Part shown: one piece after another, positions 11,638-18,849 of the stretch
Layout: every line of letters begins with the position of its first letter
Position numbering within the stretch: the stretch's first letter is position 1
NCBI GenBank assembly: GCA_026184775.1
Contig: JANCYW010000001.1
Span: forward strand, 310,001 to 374,000
Reading direction: 5' to 3'
From: Cyanidium caldarium
Lineage: Eukaryota; Rhodophyta; Bangiophyceae; Cyanidiales; Cyanidiaceae
DNA: 64,000 nt
The notes under the pieces: generated by a model
The model's input: the letters and a program-made list of their open reading frames with translations, nothing else
Told to the model about the DNA's origin: nothing
Database searches by the model: none
Program-made: the position numbers and the translations under genes

Positions 11638-13068
11638 TCACTCATCGTATACGCGGCACTCGTCGGCGGCCGCATTGGCCGGGTCGGAGCAGTACGCCTC
11701 CAGCTTGTCGTCGCGGTCGGCGATGTCGCCCGCTGTGCCGGACGCCGAGGACGGACGCGTGGTGGGCACTGACACCGCCCCGGCGCCACTGCCCCCACTG
11801 CTGCCGCCGGTGCTCGCCGTCGACGGCCGCCGCGACTGGCGTTTGCGCGCATTCGCACTCTCCGGTCCGTACGTCTTGCTCAGGTACTCCACAATGTCGG
11901 CCGACTCGAACATGGCGATGCCGGTGTTGGGATCCATCAAATACGGCACCTGCACCCGTCCGGTCAGGTTCTGCAGCACTCTGCGGTTCACCGAGCCGCG
12001 CGCACAATTGTGTAGCAGGTACGGCAGCTCCAGCTCTACCAGCCGCTCGCGCACCACTTTGGAGAAGGGCGACGCCTCGTAGGCCCACAGCTCCAGCGGG
12101 TATTTGGGCACGGCACACGTGCCCGCTTTGCGCGCACCGTGGCCGCGGCGCGTCAGGCTGGCCAGCCCGGCGCTGAAGGTGGTGAGCGGCCCGAGCGACA
12201 GCGGCAGCGGCACGCGCCCGTCGCCGTAGGTCTGACACAAGTACCGAATGATCTCGTCCGACTCGTAACCCTCAAAGCCGGTGTTCTCATCGATCAAATA
12301 CGGAAACATCTGCTTGCCGCCGCGCTCCTGCACGTACGGGCGGTACCGCTCGCCGCCTTTGGGGCACGGAAACATGAGCACGTCGAGGTCGAGTGCGGAG
12401 GCCGCCTCGCGCACTTTGCGGCAGAACGGACACGCTTCGAATTCGTACAGTTTGATGGTGCCCGGCGCCGGACGAGACGATGGCAGAAACGCCGACGACT
12501 CTTCGATGCGGCTGTAGACGCGCTCCTGCACCTGAGCGCCCCAGTCTTTGGGGTGGGCCGGCTCGGTCGCCGTGGTGGTGGTGGTGGTGGTGGTGCCCGC
12601 CGCCGCGCTCGACGTCGCCCCGGCCGTCCCGCTCCGCTCAGCGTCGTCCCGCATGCGCACCCGATAGCCCGTGACGAACGCGCCGCTGCCAGCACGCAGC
12701 AAGCTGCCCAACACACCCGTGGCAAAGTCCACCATACCGCCCTGCGGCACTTGGAACAGTTTCGGCTCGGGCGCTACAAACCCCACCGGCGGCTCGATGT
12801 CGTCGCCGTCCGCCTCCACGTACGCCACCCGCCGTTGCTCCATCACCACCTGTGACTGACCCGACCGACCCGCGCCCGACTGCACCGCCGCGCCGCCGGT
12901 ATTCGTGCCCGACTCGCCGCCGTTCACCATGCGCAACGCAGGCAACCGCGCTCGAAAAGACGGCCGCCGCGCCGTCCACCGCCAACGCTTGCCGCTCGGA
13001 GCGCCAAACTTGCCTGCCACGATGTGCCCGCCACGCACAAACGTTACCGGTGCCTGCACAAAGGTCAT
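11638..13068 (-). CDS. Plastid tandem glutaredoxin/GST-N-like protein with C-terminal CP12-like tail
   Basis: 476 aa from the ATG at 13068. The start MTFVQAPVTFV plus a basic, Ser/Arg-rich leader fits a plastid transit peptide. A poly-Thr run (residues 159-166) precedes two thioredoxin-fold repeats of the plant plastid 'thioredoxin-family/GST-N' type. Repeat 1 has a CPFC active site at 213-216 and FPYLIDENTG. Repeat 2 has SPFS at 333-336 and VPYLMDPNTG, so its redox cysteines are gone; plant relatives as I recall them keep SPFC. After a Ser/Gly linker the protein ends at 454-476 with DDKLEAYC...DECRVYDE, closely like the C-terminal segment of CP12 and the GapB extension. The Cys pair is C460 and C471 (spacing of 10 rather than the usual 8). 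The repeat fold is firm. The tail's role in binding GAPDH or sensing redox state is inference. Confidence 0.85.
   Translation of the reverse strand: MTFVQAPVTFVRGGHIVAGKFGAPSGKRWRWTARRPSFRARLPALRMVNGGESGTNTGGAAVQSGAGRSGQSQVVMEQRRVAYVEADGDDIEPPVGFVAPEPKLFQVPQGGMVDFATGVLGSLLRAGSGAFVTGYRVRMRDDAERSGTAGATSSAAAGTTTTTTTTATEPAHPKDWGAQVQERVYSRIEESSAFLPSSRPAPGTIKLYEFEACPFCRKVREAASALDLDVLMFPCPKGGERYRPYVQERGGKQMFPYLIDENTGFEGYESDEIIRYLCQTYGDGRVPLPLSLGPLTTFSAGLASLTRRGHGARKAGTCAVPKYPLELWAYEASPFSKVVRERLVELELPYLLHNCARGSVNRRVLQNLTGRVQVPYLMDPNTGIAMFESADIVEYLSKTYGPESANARKRQSRRPSTASTGGSSGGSGAGAVSVPTTRPSSASGTAGDIADRDDKLEAYCSDPANAAADECRVYDE
12571..12595. repeat. (GGT)n trinucleotide run inside the Grx/CP12 gene
   Basis: About eight GGT/GTG units, read on the minus strand as ACC codons giving poly-Thr in the linker before the first glutaredoxin-like repeat. 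Confidence 0.85.
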
Positions 13069-13321
13069 GAACTCGGAATCGGATGGTGGCCAAAGGTCCA
13101 CGGTGCGCGTTGCAGAGAAGCGCAGGGCGTATGCGCCGAACGCGTCCGCAATCTTCGACACGGCAGCCGGCTCCCGAACGATGGGGGAAACGTGAACGTT
13201 CCAGAAAGGAATGGAATGTAAGGGAAGGTGTTTGGGAGCGGGCCAGAACGACGGTCGACGGAGCGACCGTTCCGTCGCCGCTCCGACTGAAGCATCCTCG
13301 TCGCGTCCATGCACAGGTCTG
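13069..13321. promoter_or_regulatory. Shared divergent promoter region, Grx/CP12 and Rab escort protein
   Basis: 253 bases between divergent starts. An in-frame ATG at 13211 could give the Rab escort protein 37 extra residues. No specific element recognised. Confidence 0.35.
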
Positions 13322-15136
13322 ATGCGTCCGGATGGCGGAACGCCACAATTCAATGGGGACAAGGAGTCTCTCTCGGGAGATGAAGTGTTCGACGTGGTGC
13401 TAGAGGGCACCGACTGGCACGTGTGTCTGCTGGCGGCGGCGTTGGCGCACGCGCAACAACGGGTGCTGGTGCTGGATGCGAACGAGGTCTACGGTGGTAC
13501 GGCGTCGGGCACGATCTCGTTCACGGAACTGTTTGGTGATGAGTGCTCCTCCACGTCGGTGCGCGTGCTGCATCGTGGTGGATATGCGGCGGCCGACATG
13601 CTCACAGGTGCGCGGCAGTCGTCATTTTCCGTGGACCGGACACCGCGGTTCCACTTTGCCGCCGACGCGCTTATCGACACGTTGATTAGCAGCGGCGCCG
13701 GTTCGTATCTCGTCTTCCGGCCGGTGGAAGCCATGTACCTGATTTTGCCATCGTGCGCGACCGTCGCACACCCCTCTGGCGCCCGCTGTGTCCGCGTGCC
13801 CTGCAGCAAGGCGGACGTGTTCGGGTGGCGCGAGGCGTCGTTCGCGGAGAAGCGCACGTTGATGAGCTTGCTGCGGCGATGCTATTTGGCGTGCGAGCGG
13901 GACCGCGGCACGGATACCGCCAGCGTGGCTTTCGATGCCAGTGAAGAGGAGCGGTGTGCGGCGCGCGCGTTGCTGCGGGATGCACCACATACACGTCGTT
14001 TCCTGCGCGACTGGGTGGAGCCGGAATGTGCGGCCAGTTTGGGATATCGCCGCGGACTGGTGTCCGATCTGATGTGGTACGCTTTCGCCATGGCCACCGA
14101 CGCCGAGCGGAGCGCGTTGGATATCGCCGAGGGCGTGCAACGGGTGGCACGCTTCTTGCGATCCATCCTGCGGTACGGCACCGCCACACCGTTTCTGTTC
14201 GGCAAACACGGCACTGCCGAGATCGGGCAGGCGCTCGCTCGACGGTGCGCGGTCAAGGGCGGTGCGGTGGCGCTGCGCCGCGGCATTGCCGAGGTGCAGA
14301 TCGCTGGCGAGGTGAACGGGACAGCGACGCCGAGGGCACAGGACATTGCGTTGCGCGTGCACACCAGCTGCGGCGAGTGCGTTGCCGGGCGCGTGGGCGC
14401 GGCCCGCATGAGTTGTTCAGATGCAGAAGAGGAGTCGGCAGTGGCGGCGGCTGCCGACCAAAAGGCGCCGGTCGTGCGCTTTACCGGCATTCGTCATCAG
14501 TCGCTGTTCGAGTCGGTGGCGAGCGACGGCCAGGTGCCCGGTGTGGCGCTGCTGAGGATGCCATTGCATGACGGCGATCAGGCGCCGGGAGGGCACTCTC
14601 ACGCTGTCGCCAGCAGCAGCGGTGTCCTGTGCTTGCGCCAGGTCGATGGCAGCGCGGGCGTGTGTCCCGCGGGCATGTACCTGGTGTACGCGGAAATCGA
14701 GGCGCTCACCGGTAGCACGACCGCCTCGCCACTGTCGCTCGAAATGCAACAGTCCATTCTAGAGGGCGCGCTGCGCCGGGTGCTCCGCACCCTGCAACCG
14801 CCCGGCCACGACACCACTGTACCCGACGCGGACACCCTGGAGCAAGCGTTTGCGGCCTACGCCTTTGTCGGTGCGCCCACCATGCCACCGATGCTGCACT
14901 TGCAGTCGGCGAAAGCGCACTGCCGCCTGCCTGTCCGTTGGCACCCGTGGTTCACCGACTCGACGATCGCGACCTGCCGACAAGCTGCCCACTGGTTCCT
15001 AGCGGCCGGCTCGCCCGACCCTCTCCACGCCCTCGAATCGTTCTTTCCCCCGCCTACCGAGCCGAGTGCCGTGGACGCAACAGCGACGCGAAGCGCCCCG
15101 GCGTCGGCCGCCGCCACCGCCGTCCGCCCTCCCTAA
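13322..15136 (+). CDS. Rab escort protein (Rab geranylgeranyltransferase component A)
   Basis: Presents new Rab GTPases to geranylgeranyltransferase II and delivers them to membranes. Start placed at 13322 (604 aa) because the GDI/REP fold begins shortly after, as in the family; an ATG at 13211 in the same frame is an alternative. Sequence-conserved regions are visible: DVVLEGTDWHVCLLAAALA and the dinucleotide-fold-like VLVLDANEVYGGTASG, FHFAADALIDTLISSGAGSYL, GWREASFAEKRTLM, and YGTATPFLFGKHGTAEIGQALARRCAVKGG. Length, divergence and the insertion after residue ~340 favour REP over the strongly conserved ~450-residue Rab GDI. The protein ends 21 bp from the convergent Tim8 gene. Confidence 0.82.
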   Translation: MRPDGGTPQFNGDKESLSGDEVFDVVLEGTDWHVCLLAAALAHAQQRVLVLDANEVYGGTASGTISFTELFGDECSSTSVRVLHRGGYAAADMLTGARQSSFSVDRTPRFHFAADALIDTLISSGAGSYLVFRPVEAMYLILPSCATVAHPSGARCVRVPCSKADVFGWREASFAEKRTLMSLLRRCYLACERDRGTDTASVAFDASEEERCAARALLRDAPHTRRFLRDWVEPECAASLGYRRGLVSDLMWYAFAMATDAERSALDIAEGVQRVARFLRSILRYGTATPFLFGKHGTAEIGQALARRCAVKGGAVALRRGIAEVQIAGEVNGTATPRAQDIALRVHTSCGECVAGRVGAARMSCSDAEEESAVAAAADQKAPVVRFTGIRHQSLFESVASDGQVPGVALLRMPLHDGDQAPGGHSHAVASSSGVLCLRQVDGSAGVCPAGMYLVYAEIEALTGSTTASPLSLEMQQSILEGALRRVLRTLQPPGHDTTVPDADTLEQAFAAYAFVGAPTMPPMLHLQSAKAHCRLPVRWHPWFTDSTIATCRQAAHWFLAAGSPDPLHALESFFPPPTEPSAVDATATRSAPASAAATAVRPP

Positions 15137-16650: not shown

Positions 16651-18849
16651 ATGCCCGCGCCTGCGACTGCTGCTACGGACGTCTCGGTGGTTGTACAGTG
16701 TGCGTTTTGCGGGGGCACTGCTTCAGCGGGACGCCCCGAGAGTGTCCCCGGTCGACGACCGCGACCAGCGCGAAGCGAGGAGGACGCGCCAGTCACACTG
16801 CAAGAGTATGTGTCACGGCCGTGGCGTCTGGTGCGCTGTGCGCGTTGTCAGCGGGTGGTGGAGGAGCGGTTGATTTCCGTGGCCGACGTCGTTTGTACGA
16901 TGTTGTGCCGACGACACGCCCCTTTCGCTGCCGAGGTTGCAGCAGGGGAAGCGACACCCGCAACCAGCGACGCTGTGGAGCTGGGCACGCCGCACGGCAC
17001 CAACGAACTGGTGGCGCTGCATTATGCGGTGATGCCCGACTTTCAGCAGCCGCCTTTCGATACCCTGGGGCGCACCGTCGGCCCCGATGACCCGTACATA
17101 TCCGTCGGCATGACGACGGCACTGTCGGTGATGTTGCCGCGGGTGTACAGCACCCCGATGATGGTGGTGCGTCGGATGAGCGGCGCGTTGGCCGAACTGG
17201 AGCGTCTGAGTGCGGATCTGGGTCTGACGTCGTCGTCGACGACGACGACGACGAGTGCCGGCGAGGAGGCGGAGGCCGGCGGCGAGCGCCACGCCAGCGC
17301 GCTGCGCGACTCGGACCTCTCCTCCAGCGCCTCCGAGGCAGTACACGGGGACGGTGCGGCGCGCAGCAACAAACGGCGCGCGCAACGAAAAGTGGCGCGC
17401 GCGGCTGATGCCCCCGGGGCGGATGGCCCGGCCGCCGTGGCAGCCGACGAGCAAACCGCCACCGTCGACGATGCCTCCCTGCAGAATGTGGCGTTGCGCA
17501 CGTTTCTCATGGTGTACTTTGTGGTGACCGACGTGGTGATGCGATTGCAACCGATATCGCCGCATCACGAGAAGCGCCTGGTGGAGACCGCCATGCACCT
17601 CTACCGCGCCTGCATGGGCAAGCTGTCGTTGCGCAACCGCATCATCGAGGCGCTGAGCGTGGCGTGTGTGCTGCTGGCGTGCGAACGACTGTGCGCCCAG
17701 GGCGTGGAGGTCGGGCTGGCGGTCGGCACGGAGGCGTGTCGCGCCTCGGACCGCGCGTTCGTCCAGCGAGTGTACGAGGCGGTGCGCCCGGTGTGGCCGT
17801 CGGCATCGCTGCCGCTCATCTACGAATACACCCGAGCGGTGTTGAATTTGCTGTTGGAGCGACGGCTGGACACCGTGGCCGCCATTCGCGCCGAGATGCC
17901 CAAGTACTGCGCGGCGCTGGGCGTCGGCGAACCGGTGCAACGCGTCGCCCAGAGCATTGCCGAGCGCTCCATGGTGCATCCGGTGTGCGTGCGTCGCAAC
18001 AGTGTGAGCGTGTGTGCGGCGGCGATATACCTGGCGGCGCATTTGGAAGAGGGCGGCAGCGGCAGTGTGCAGCGGTCTGCGAGTGGCGAAGGCGCGACGA
18101 CGACGGCGGCGGCGGCGGCGACAGTTGCCCCGAATGGCGGAGGTGACGCGGCGGCGCGGGAGGCCGCGCGCCTCAAACAGAAACAGATCGTGGACGTTTT
18201 ACAAGTGTCGGAAGTGACGTTGCGCAAGGCGCACAAGGAGATGCTGGCGCATTTGGATCTGGTGATGCCGCCCGGTTATCGATCGCTGAGCGCCGTACAG
18301 AGCGCGTTGCCGCCGAGTTACCAGAAAGTGGCCGCGGCCGCCATCGAACGGCAGCAACAACAACAGTCGATGCGAGAGCAGGTAGAGAACCCCACAGTTC
18401 AGGGGGAGGAAGCAGCGAACGAGTCGCCGCATCTGGAGTCGTCTTCGTCATCATCATCATCATCATCATCATCATCGTCTAGGACACCCTGGGACACGGT
18501 GATACCGCACGATGTTCTACTACAAGAGCACCTGCGGGTGCGATTGCCGCCGCTTCCCGCTCCCGGCACGGCCGTCGTGCGCATGTGGCTGGCACCGCGG
18601 GAGACGCTGTCGGCCGATCTCCGCGACAAGGCGGTGCAGATGGCCGCCCGCCGCCAATTGCCCATCCCGCTGCCGCTGTTGCTGCGATTGGTGGAGAACG
18701 ATCGCGTGCCACCGACGACGACGACGACGACGACCAACACGCGAGCGGCCGCAGAAGCCGCGACACCGCTGCCTCCGCCGCTCCCGCCGCTACCTCGCGG
18801 CCCGCCGACGGACGACACCACCGTGGCCGACGCGTCGCCGCCCGCCTAA
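16651..18849 (+). CDS. TFIIB/BRF-family general transcription factor, divergent and enlarged
   Basis: 732 aa from the first ATG. An N-terminal zinc ribbon is visible: CAFC at residues 17-20 and CARC at 63-66. It is followed after a long spacer by two cyclin-like folds (about 309-345, HLYRACMGKLSLRNRI, and about 419-545, including QSIAERSMVHPVCVRRNSVSVCAAAIYLAAHLE and KQIVDVLQVSEVTLRKAHKEM). This order is that of TFIIB, the Pol III factor BRF1 and plant TFIIB-like proteins. Differences are the 35-residue loop inside the ribbon, a low-complexity insert before the core, poly-Gln, poly-Ser (near 18440) and poly-Thr (near 18715), and a ~200-residue C-terminal extension. Which polymerase it serves cannot be told. 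The gene ends 32 bp from the convergent PPR gene. Confidence 0.75.
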   Translation: MPAPATAATDVSVVVQCAFCGGTASAGRPESVPGRRPRPARSEEDAPVTLQEYVSRPWRLVRCARCQRVVEERLISVADVVCTMLCRRHAPFAAEVAAGEATPATSDAVELGTPHGTNELVALHYAVMPDFQQPPFDTLGRTVGPDDPYISVGMTTALSVMLPRVYSTPMMVVRRMSGALAELERLSADLGLTSSSTTTTTSAGEEAEAGGERHASALRDSDLSSSASEAVHGDGAARSNKRRAQRKVARAADAPGADGPAAVAADEQTATVDDASLQNVALRTFLMVYFVVTDVVMRLQPISPHHEKRLVETAMHLYRACMGKLSLRNRIIEALSVACVLLACERLCAQGVEVGLAVGTEACRASDRAFVQRVYEAVRPVWPSASLPLIYEYTRAVLNLLLERRLDTVAAIRAEMPKYCAALGVGEPVQRVAQSIAERSMVHPVCVRRNSVSVCAAAIYLAAHLEEGGSGSVQRSASGEGATTTAAAAATVAPNGGGDAAAREAARLKQKQIVDVLQVSEVTLRKAHKEMLAHLDLVMPPGYRSLSAVQSALPPSYQKVAAAAIERQQQQQSMREQVENPTVQGEEAANESPHLESSSSSSSSSSSSSSRTPWDTVIPHDVLLQEHLRVRLPPLPAPGTAVVRMWLAPRETLSADLRDKAVQMAARRQLPIPLPLLLRLVENDRVPPTTTTTTTNTRAAAEAATPLPPPLPPLPRGPPTDDTTVADASPPA
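17229..17255. repeat. (TCG)/(ACG) trinucleotide run in TFIIB-family gene
   Basis: Nine triplets switching from TCG to ACG, read as Ser then Thr codons in a low-complexity insert. Confidence 0.8.
18437..18480. repeat. (TCA)n trinucleotide run coding poly-Ser
   Basis: About 14 consecutive Ser codons, mostly TCA, in the C-terminal part of the TFIIB-family protein. TCA is a rare choice in this GC-rich gene, so a recent slippage expansion is likely. Confidence 0.85.

What the first reader, a model, noticed from the sequence alone, without database searches (positions are those of the whole stretch)
11638..13068. CP12-like redox tail fused to a plastid tandem glutaredoxin-like protein
The last 23 residues (from Asp454; C460 and C471, ending DECRVYDE; bases 11641-11709) copy the C-terminal half of CP12, the Calvin-cycle linker that binds GAPDH when its cysteines are oxidised. 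Such tails are known on GapB and, in Chlamydomonas, on adenylate kinase 3, but I know of none on a glutaredoxin/GST-N-like protein. Here a CPFC redox domain and a potential disulfide sensor are in one chain, joined by a flexible Ser/Gly linker. The suggestion is a dedicated thiol enzyme recruited to, or tuned by, the GAPDH/PRK complex. The spacing is C-x10-C rather than C-x8-C, so the loop may differ.
Basis: partly seen in the sequence, partly recalled or inferred. Interest (0 to 1): 0.78.

Follow-up and report, generated by a model that had tools for sequence, protein, structure and literature searches.

The report
CP12-like tail on a glutaredoxin-like protein
A gene of what is probably the hot-spring red alga Cyanidium caldarium encodes a glutaredoxin-like protein whose last 25 or so residues look like the GAPDH-gripping end of CP12, the dark switch of carbon fixation, so this thiol protein may dock on GAPDH in a redox-dependent way.

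Summary
An intronless 476-residue ORF (11638-13068, minus) carries two thioredoxin-fold GST_N/glutaredoxin-like domains (CPFC, then SPFS), a disordered Ser/Gly-rich linker and the tail DKLEAYCSDPANAAADECRVYDE. The tail alone matches Pfam CP12 (E 6.9e-4; 20.8 bits, below the 22.7 cut-off), only over the last third of the profile, ending where CP12 ends. It keeps 8 of 9 conserved CP12 C-terminal columns if one 2-residue insertion is allowed; 0 of 300,000 shuffles do. Spacing is C-x10-C with the central proline displaced, whereas 43 of 43 cyanobacterial CP12s examined with both C-terminal cysteines have C-x8-C. Of 56 bacterial loci related to the core, 54 reach the end of domain 2 and none has the tail. 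Published CP12-type tails sit on GapB, adenylate kinase 3 and argininosuccinate lyase; my paper searches found none on a glutaredoxin-like protein. Best reading: a CP12-derived, redox-switched tether that docks this thiol protein on A4-GAPDH, perhaps to reverse glutathionylation. GAPDH binding, disulfide formation and conservation in relatives are untested; no eukaryotic genomes could be searched.

The parts
11638..13068 (-). ORF, 476 aa plus stop: tandem GST_N/glutaredoxin-like protein with a CP12-like C-terminus
12931..13068 (-). residues 1-46: putative plastid transit peptide (Phe at position 3, no acidic residue in the first 50; the targeting rule is recalled, not tested)
   Evidence: for composition; pLDDT about 30-38 here; interpretation is inference
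12223..12459 (-). residues 204-282: first thioredoxin-fold GST_N/glutaredoxin-like domain
   Evidence: GST_N_3 207-282; pLDDT 84-96 in blocks 201-300
12421..12432 (-). residues 213-216: CPFC motif; CPFC in 46 of 46 bacterial relatives that translated cleanly
11863..12096 (-). residues 325-402: second thioredoxin-fold domain
   Evidence: (GST_N_2 332-398)
12061..12072 (-). residues 333-336: SPFS, degenerate second active-site motif; SP[FYW]C in 31 of the 37 relatives where the motif pattern was found, Ser or Ala in 6
11731..11862 (-). residues 403-446: linker rich in Ser, Thr, Gly, Ala, Pro (0.70 of residues 403-452), predicted disordered in its second half (424-448)
11641..11730 (-). residues 447-476: CP12-like C-terminal tail; helices 447-461 and 469-475 in the model (block pLDDT 45-81)
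11689..11691 (-). Cys460, first cysteine of the tail pair
11656..11658 (-). Cys471, second cysteine of the tail pair
11677..11682 (-). Pro463-Ala464, the two residues aligned as an insertion relative to C-x8-C CP12s
   Evidence: alignments

Best explanation
A C-terminal, CP12-derived redox peptide has been joined through a flexible linker to a chloroplast-type tandem thioredoxin-fold (GST_N/glutaredoxin-like) protein. In the dark or under oxidation C460-C471 forms a disulfide, the tail folds into the CP12 helical turn, and its acidic end (R-V-Y-D-E) enters the coenzyme/active-site cleft of A4-GAPDH (GapA), tethering the CPFC domain to that enzyme; thioredoxin reduction in the light releases it. 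The likeliest purpose of the tether is to bring a thiol-reducing domain to GapA, whose catalytic cysteine is prone to glutathionylation, and secondarily to inhibit or compete with free CP12. SHOWN here by sequence: the ORF, the tandem domains, the CPFC site, the linker and the statistically significant CP12 resemblance. INFERRED: plastid location, disulfide, GAPDH docking, enzymatic activity, GAPDH as substrate.
For: CP12 similarity beyond chance, in the right place (extreme C-terminus, profile end) and with both cysteines and the Y-C / E-C-R-x-Y frame. Only the GAPDH-binding end of CP12 is present, as in GapB and adenylate kinase 3: 'only the C-terminal region ... [quoted passage not shown] PMC9406205, passages). 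Both C-terminal residues are acidic, fitting the last/penultimate Glu that contacts Arg77/Arg82 of GAPDH (PMC4436894, passages). A4-GAPDH is said to be the only photosynthetic GAPDH of red algae, and glutathionylated A4-GAPDH is reactivated by glutaredoxins (PMC3838966, passages), so a glutaredoxin-like partner docked there makes sense. Core well modelled, linker not.
Against: Two residues too many in the disulfide loop and no proline at the CP12 place: 43 of 43 CP12s examined with both cysteines are C-x8-C with Pro fourth in the loop, and the C-x8-C, CxxxPxxxxC form is what binds GAPDH in the literature seen. Below the Pfam curated cut-off. No orthologue with the tail was available. No evidence of plastid import or of thiol activity; the family is not a curated glutaredoxin. 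A fusion can be cotransport of a relic.
Confidence: 0.5

Rival explanations
1. The tail is CP12-derived but acts within the molecule: oxidised, it folds back on the CPFC domain (its own or that of a second copy) and gates it, as the GapB extension and the alpha-Rubisco-activase tail gate their own enzymes; GAPDH is not involved.
For: GapB and Rubisco activase tails act on their own enzyme (PMC4436894, passages). A long flexible linker allows it. The altered loop could reflect release from the GAPDH-fitting constraint.
Against: The residues kept (YC, N, A, ECR, Y, acidic end) are those of the GAPDH-binding end, which a purely internal switch need not keep. No model of the tail on the core: tail and core are joined by a stretch with pLDDT below 50.
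Confidence: 0.2
2. The tail is a CP12-derived relic: captured once, still coding, but its loop insertion has spoiled GAPDH binding and it now has no role.
For: C-x10-C and the displaced proline are seen in none of the 43 cyanobacterial CP12s with both cysteines; score below the Pfam cut-off.
Against: Eight of nine chosen columns survive, including both cysteines and the final Y-D-E; a relic should decay more evenly. Diatom CP12s lack the central proline and still count as CP12 (PMC7992989, passages).
Confidence: 0.18
3. Chance: an acidic, Cys-containing disordered C-terminus that resembles CP12 by accident.
For: Single hits are weak: E 0.025 for the whole protein in Pfam, 0.097 at best in PDB sequences. 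Among about 25 genes and any family a reader might think of, one E 0.025 hit is not remarkable by itself.
Against: 0 of 200,000 and 0 of 300,000 shuffles reach the observed values; all 5 PDB hits are CP12; the match is at the C-terminal end of both sequences; the host is a redox protein.
Confidence: 0.08
4. Annotation artefact: the tail is outside the true gene (wrong frame, unspliced intron or chimeric assembly).
For: No transcript evidence could be examined; 41 genes of Cyanidium caldarium do have introns (PMC13353863, Table 1 passage).
Against: One uninterrupted ORF with steady third-position GC through the tail; the tail ends exactly at a stop codon as CP12 does.
Confidence: 0.04

Closest known systems
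Adenylate kinase 3 (ADK3) of Chlamydomonas with its CP12-like tail
   Same: An enzyme not of the Calvin cycle proper carries only the C-terminal Cys-pair end of CP12 at its own C-terminus; the ADK3 tail binds GAPDH (PMC9406205 and PMC8151241, passages)
   Different: Host is a tandem thioredoxin-fold protein, not a kinase; loop is C-x10-C with displaced proline, not CxxxPxxxxC; GAPDH binding untested here; the ADK3 papers themselves were not read
GapB subunit of plant A2B2-GAPDH (C-terminal extension)
   Same: C-terminal half of CP12 fused to another protein, Cys pair and acidic end (PMC4436894, PMC3906501, passages)
   Different: GapB is itself GAPDH and regulates itself; here the host is not GAPDH. 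Red algae are said to have GapA only (PMC4436894, passage)
CP12 (PF02672)
   Same: Last 23 profile positions, both C-terminal cysteines, Y-C and E-C-R-x-Y, acidic end
   Different: No AWD_VEEL core, no N-terminal Cys pair, loop of 10 not 8, central Pro displaced, below Pfam cut-off
CBS-CP12 fusions of cyanobacteria
   Same: CP12 region at the C-terminal end of another domain (PMC9406205, PMC3906501, passages)
   Different: Those keep AWD_VEE; 8 of 20 regions fetched had CP12 ends without the second cysteine, and a studied CBS-CP12 does not form the GAPDH/PRK complex (PMC9406205, passage)
Tandem GST_N/glutaredoxin-like proteins of Myxococcota, some Gammaproteobacteria and Candidatus Cyanaurora; plant At5g03880/At4g10000-type proteins (the plant kinship is recalled, from no call)
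   Same: 45-60% identity over the two domains to 46 bacterial relatives; invariant CPFC
   Different: 54 of 54 bacterial relatives that reach the end of domain 2 stop within 21 residues, without a cysteine there

Membership tests
CP12 proper (PF02672) | Pfam curated cut-off 22.7 bits | tested here: not met
   20.8 bits tail alone, 15.8 whole protein
CP12 proper (PF02672) | AWD_VEEL core and N-terminal cysteine pair | tested here: not met
   match covers only profile positions 48-70 of 70; no such motif in residues 401-476 printed
CP12 proper (PF02672) | C-terminal cysteine pair eight residues apart with central proline (CxxxPxxxxC) | tested here: not met
   pair present but C-x10-C, proline third in the loop; 43 of 43 comparison CP12s are C-x8-C with Pro fourth
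CP12-like C-terminal tail (as GapB, ADK3) | CP12-homologous peptide at the extreme C-terminus of another protein | tested here: met
   (homology inferred from significance)
CP12-like C-terminal tail (as GapB, ADK3) | two cysteines in CxxxPxxxxC spacing | tested here: not met
   both cysteines present, spacing and proline differ; so it is described as CP12-derived and CP12-like, not filed as a canonical CP12 tail
CP12-like C-terminal tail (as GapB, ADK3) | acidic last residues | tested here: met
   ends Y-D-E; 43 CP12s compared end D/E then D, E or N
CP12-like C-terminal tail (as GapB, ADK3) | thioredoxin-reducible disulfide and binding to photosynthetic GAPDH | not testable with these tools
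Tandem GST_N/glutaredoxin-like proteins | two thioredoxin-fold domains, CPFC in the first | tested here: met
Tandem GST_N/glutaredoxin-like proteins | glutathione-dependent oxidoreductase activity | not testable with these tools
   no biochemical data
Glutaredoxin 2 (GrxB) equivalogs | NCBIfam cut-offs 133 (NF007702) and 186.65 (TIGR02182) bits | tested here: not met
   45.2 and 28.1 bits

The most novel reading that the evidence does not exclude
A red alga has built a GAPDH-docked thiol repair enzyme: CP12's GAPDH-binding end is used as a thioredoxin-controlled address tag that carries a glutaredoxin-like domain to A4-GAPDH in the dark or under oxidative stress, so that the enzyme can be de-glutathionylated while it is held inactive and released ready to work when the light returns. 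The longer C-x10-C loop would be a tuned variant of the CP12 switch. That would make the CP12 end a portable docking module used on unrelated enzymes in separate algal lineages.
Probability: 0.25. Interest if true: 0.8.

Novelty: new variant of a known kind. Interest (0 to 1): 0.55.

Why it matters
CP12-type tails are known on few proteins (GapB, ADK3, argininosuccinate lyase; PMC9406205, passages). One on a glutaredoxin-like protein would link the thioredoxin switch (CP12/GAPDH) with the glutathione system (glutathionylation of A4-GAPDH) in a single chain, in red algae that are said to rely on A4-GAPDH alone (PMC3838966, passage). It would support the idea that the CP12 end is a reusable GAPDH address tag, an idea raised as a question in PMC4436894 (passage), and it can be tested with two purified proteins.

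Tried and rejected
Tried without result: whole-genome look-up for the window's own organism (none held); relatives of the core in viral contigs (2 pattern matches, no relative). Papers on the plant homologue I recalled (At5g03880): one search listed 6 papers, none opened, none about its function from title and abstract start; (At4g10000, AT5G03880, GST-N domain, tandem glutaredoxin, GreenCut; at least 2 terms) found 0. Structural papers on the CP12-GAPDH complex were not held, so contact residues come from reviews' passages only. Foldseek: only 3 matches with E at or below 0.001, all one protein (Leishmania TDR1, 4ags); the rest are single GST_N domains with low whole-chain TM; the tail gives no structural match. 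The second aligner was not available. The tail modelled alone (residues 406-476, no alignment) gave pLDDT 55, too low to use, though with the same two helices.

Considered and rejected: artefact of frame or intron (steady third-position GC, single ORF); a full CP12 hidden upstream in the linker (profile match starts at position 48); a cyanobacterial origin of the fusion (core in 1 of 386 genomes of the phylum searched, and there it ends without a tail, with CP12 as a separate 77-aa ORF).

Limits of the counts: the 31 CP12s are the best-scoring loci, a biased sample; the 20 were picked by me from the first 150 or so listed matches; in 8 of those 20 the second C-terminal cysteine is gone and they are left out of the 43. 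Two cyanophage CP12-like ORFs, looked at besides, are also C-x8-C (2 of 6 records listed). Of 54 loci given to (of 56), 46 translated cleanly and entered the alignment.

Full report
What is there. The window is compact, about 66% G+C (0.647-0.677 in 8-kb blocks), with long uninterrupted ORFs for eukaryotic nuclear proteins: MutS family, cyclin, ankyrin-DHHC, G6PDH, PLP decarboxylase, GDI family, calreticulin, TFIID WD40 subunit, condensin II CAP-H2, DNA polymerase alpha and others (20 ORFs scanned, 16 with a Pfam match at E 1e-5 or better). Cyanidium caldarium has 65.7% G+C, 8.7-8.8 Mb, about 4,900 genes and 44-46 introns, against 37.6% for Galdieria partita and 54.6-55.0% for Cyanidiococcus and Cyanidioschyzon (PMC13353863, Table 1 passage). 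So Cyanidium is the likely source; this is inference, since no whole genome is held for the window and no eukaryotic collection could be searched.

The protein. The minus-strand ORF 11638-13068 has a basic N-terminus (10 Lys/Arg, no Asp/Glu in 50 residues) that would suit a plastid transit peptide (recalled rule, not tested), two GST_N/glutaredoxin-like domains (204-282 and about 325-402), a linker 70% Ser/Thr/Gly/Ala/Pro (403-452) and the tail. The AlphaFold model has block pLDDT of 80-97 across the core, below 50 at 424-448, and 64-81 from 451 to the end, with helices 447-461 and 469-475. The alignment behind the model has no relative with a tail, so the tail part rests on one sequence; modelled alone it is poor (pLDDT 55). 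The first active site CPFC is present in 46 of 46 clean bacterial relatives; the second, SPFS here, is SP[FYW]C in 31 of 37 where the motif pattern was found.

The tail is CP12-like beyond chance. Pfam CP12 is the only family found for the 29 residues alone (E 6.9e-4), but at 20.8 bits it is under the curated 22.7, and within the whole protein it falls to E 0.025. Five of five PDB sequence hits are CP12, weakly. Against a profile of 31 cyanobacterial CP12 ends the tail scores 22.2 bits, above all reported shuffles of 200,000 (best 19.9), and no other C-terminus among 3,919 ORFs, apart from the 31 training CP12s, passes 6.2 bits; true CP12s score 54.7-65.6, so this is a distant or altered copy. 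Counting columns, CP12 ends read Y-C-x-x-N-P-x-A-x-E-C-R-x-Y; the tail keeps 8 of these 9 if two residues are inserted, and 0 of 300,000 shuffles keep 8 (5 keep 7). The insertion is Pro463-Ala464 and the lost column is the central proline, now Ala466 (alignment).

What differs. All 43 cyanobacterial CP12 ends examined that keep both cysteines are C-x8-C (31, 12, recounted); another 8 lack the second cysteine. A review defines the CP12 pair as eight residues apart around a central proline, CxxxPxxxxC, and says this end is what binds GAPDH (PMC9406205, passages). Diatom CP12s lack the proline (PMC7992989, passage), so the proline is dispensable for the name at least; I saw no case with a longer loop. 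The AWD_VEEL/PRK-binding part is absent, as in GapB and ADK3.

Where the core comes from. The only scan of bacterial and archaeal genomes gave 56 related loci, mostly Myxococcota and 'Deltaproteobacteria', some Gammaproteobacteria, and one cyanobacterium, Candidatus Cyanaurora vandensis. Fifty-four reach the end of the second domain and stop within 21 residues with no cysteine. In the phylum of Cyanaurora 1 of 386 genomes has the core and 188 of 386 have CP12; in Cyanaurora they are separate ORFs. So the tail is absent from every bacterial relative seen. Whether other red algae and plants have it is not known from these tools; I recall that Arabidopsis At5g03880-type proteins end after the second domain, but no call shows it.

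How it most likely works. [quoted passage not shown] the same end fused to GapB or ADK3 carries the interaction with it (PMC8151241, passages; PMC9406205, passages). The last or penultimate Glu meets an arginine in the coenzyme site (PMC4436894, passages); this tail ends Asp-Glu. Red algae are said to have only A4-GAPDH, and glutathionylated A4-GAPDH is reactivated by glutaredoxins (PMC3838966, passages). The simplest joint reading is a redox-controlled tether that brings a glutaredoxin-like domain to A4-GAPDH. Shown: sequence, domains, resemblance. Inferred: location, disulfide, docking, activity, substrate. The longer loop is the strongest point against, and lack of orthologues the largest gap.

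Is it known? Paper searches: CP12 with red alga and glutaredoxin (4 papers, passages read in 2 of them); CP12 with fusion/CP12-like/domain architecture (12 papers, passages read in 4); CP12 tail/extension phrases (30 papers, passages read in 5); CP12-like with glutaredoxin (2 papers, passages read in 1). In what I saw, no CP12 tail on a glutaredoxin- or GST-like protein is described. The library holds open-licence papers only, and sequence databases with eukaryotes could not be searched, so an unremarked annotation may exist.

Verdict. A real, statistically supported CP12-like tail on an unexpected host protein: a new variant of a known kind (CP12-tailed proteins), with an altered disulfide loop that leaves GAPDH binding open.

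Noticed in passing
L001-L056; The core of this presumably plastid protein has its closest bacterial relatives in Myxococcota (up to about 60% identity), while only 1 of 386 genomes in the cyanobacterial phylum searched has it: a possible non-cyanobacterial origin or transfer between bacteria and algae, direction unknown.
   Followed up: partly
plasmids collection: Three Acinetobacter baumannii records of 3.7-4.1 Mb in the plasmid collection match the core at 43-46% identity with no gene listed under the match; by their size they look like chromosomes filed as plasmids.
   Followed up: no
L099-L106: Eight of 20 cyanobacterial CP12 regions fetched end in C-x8-[AS]-R: first C-terminal cysteine kept, second lost; the open frames of these were listed at 205-263 aa, which would suit CBS-CP12 fusions.
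   Followed up: no
window 12567-12596: A run of eight threonine codons (GGT/ACC-type repeat) in the variable region between transit peptide and core of the same protein; similar homopolymer runs (Ser) lie in the ORF at 16651-18849.
   Followed up: no
window 13069-13210: Only 142 bases separate this gene from the divergent GDI-family ORF at 13211-15136, suggesting a shared promoter region.
   Followed up: no
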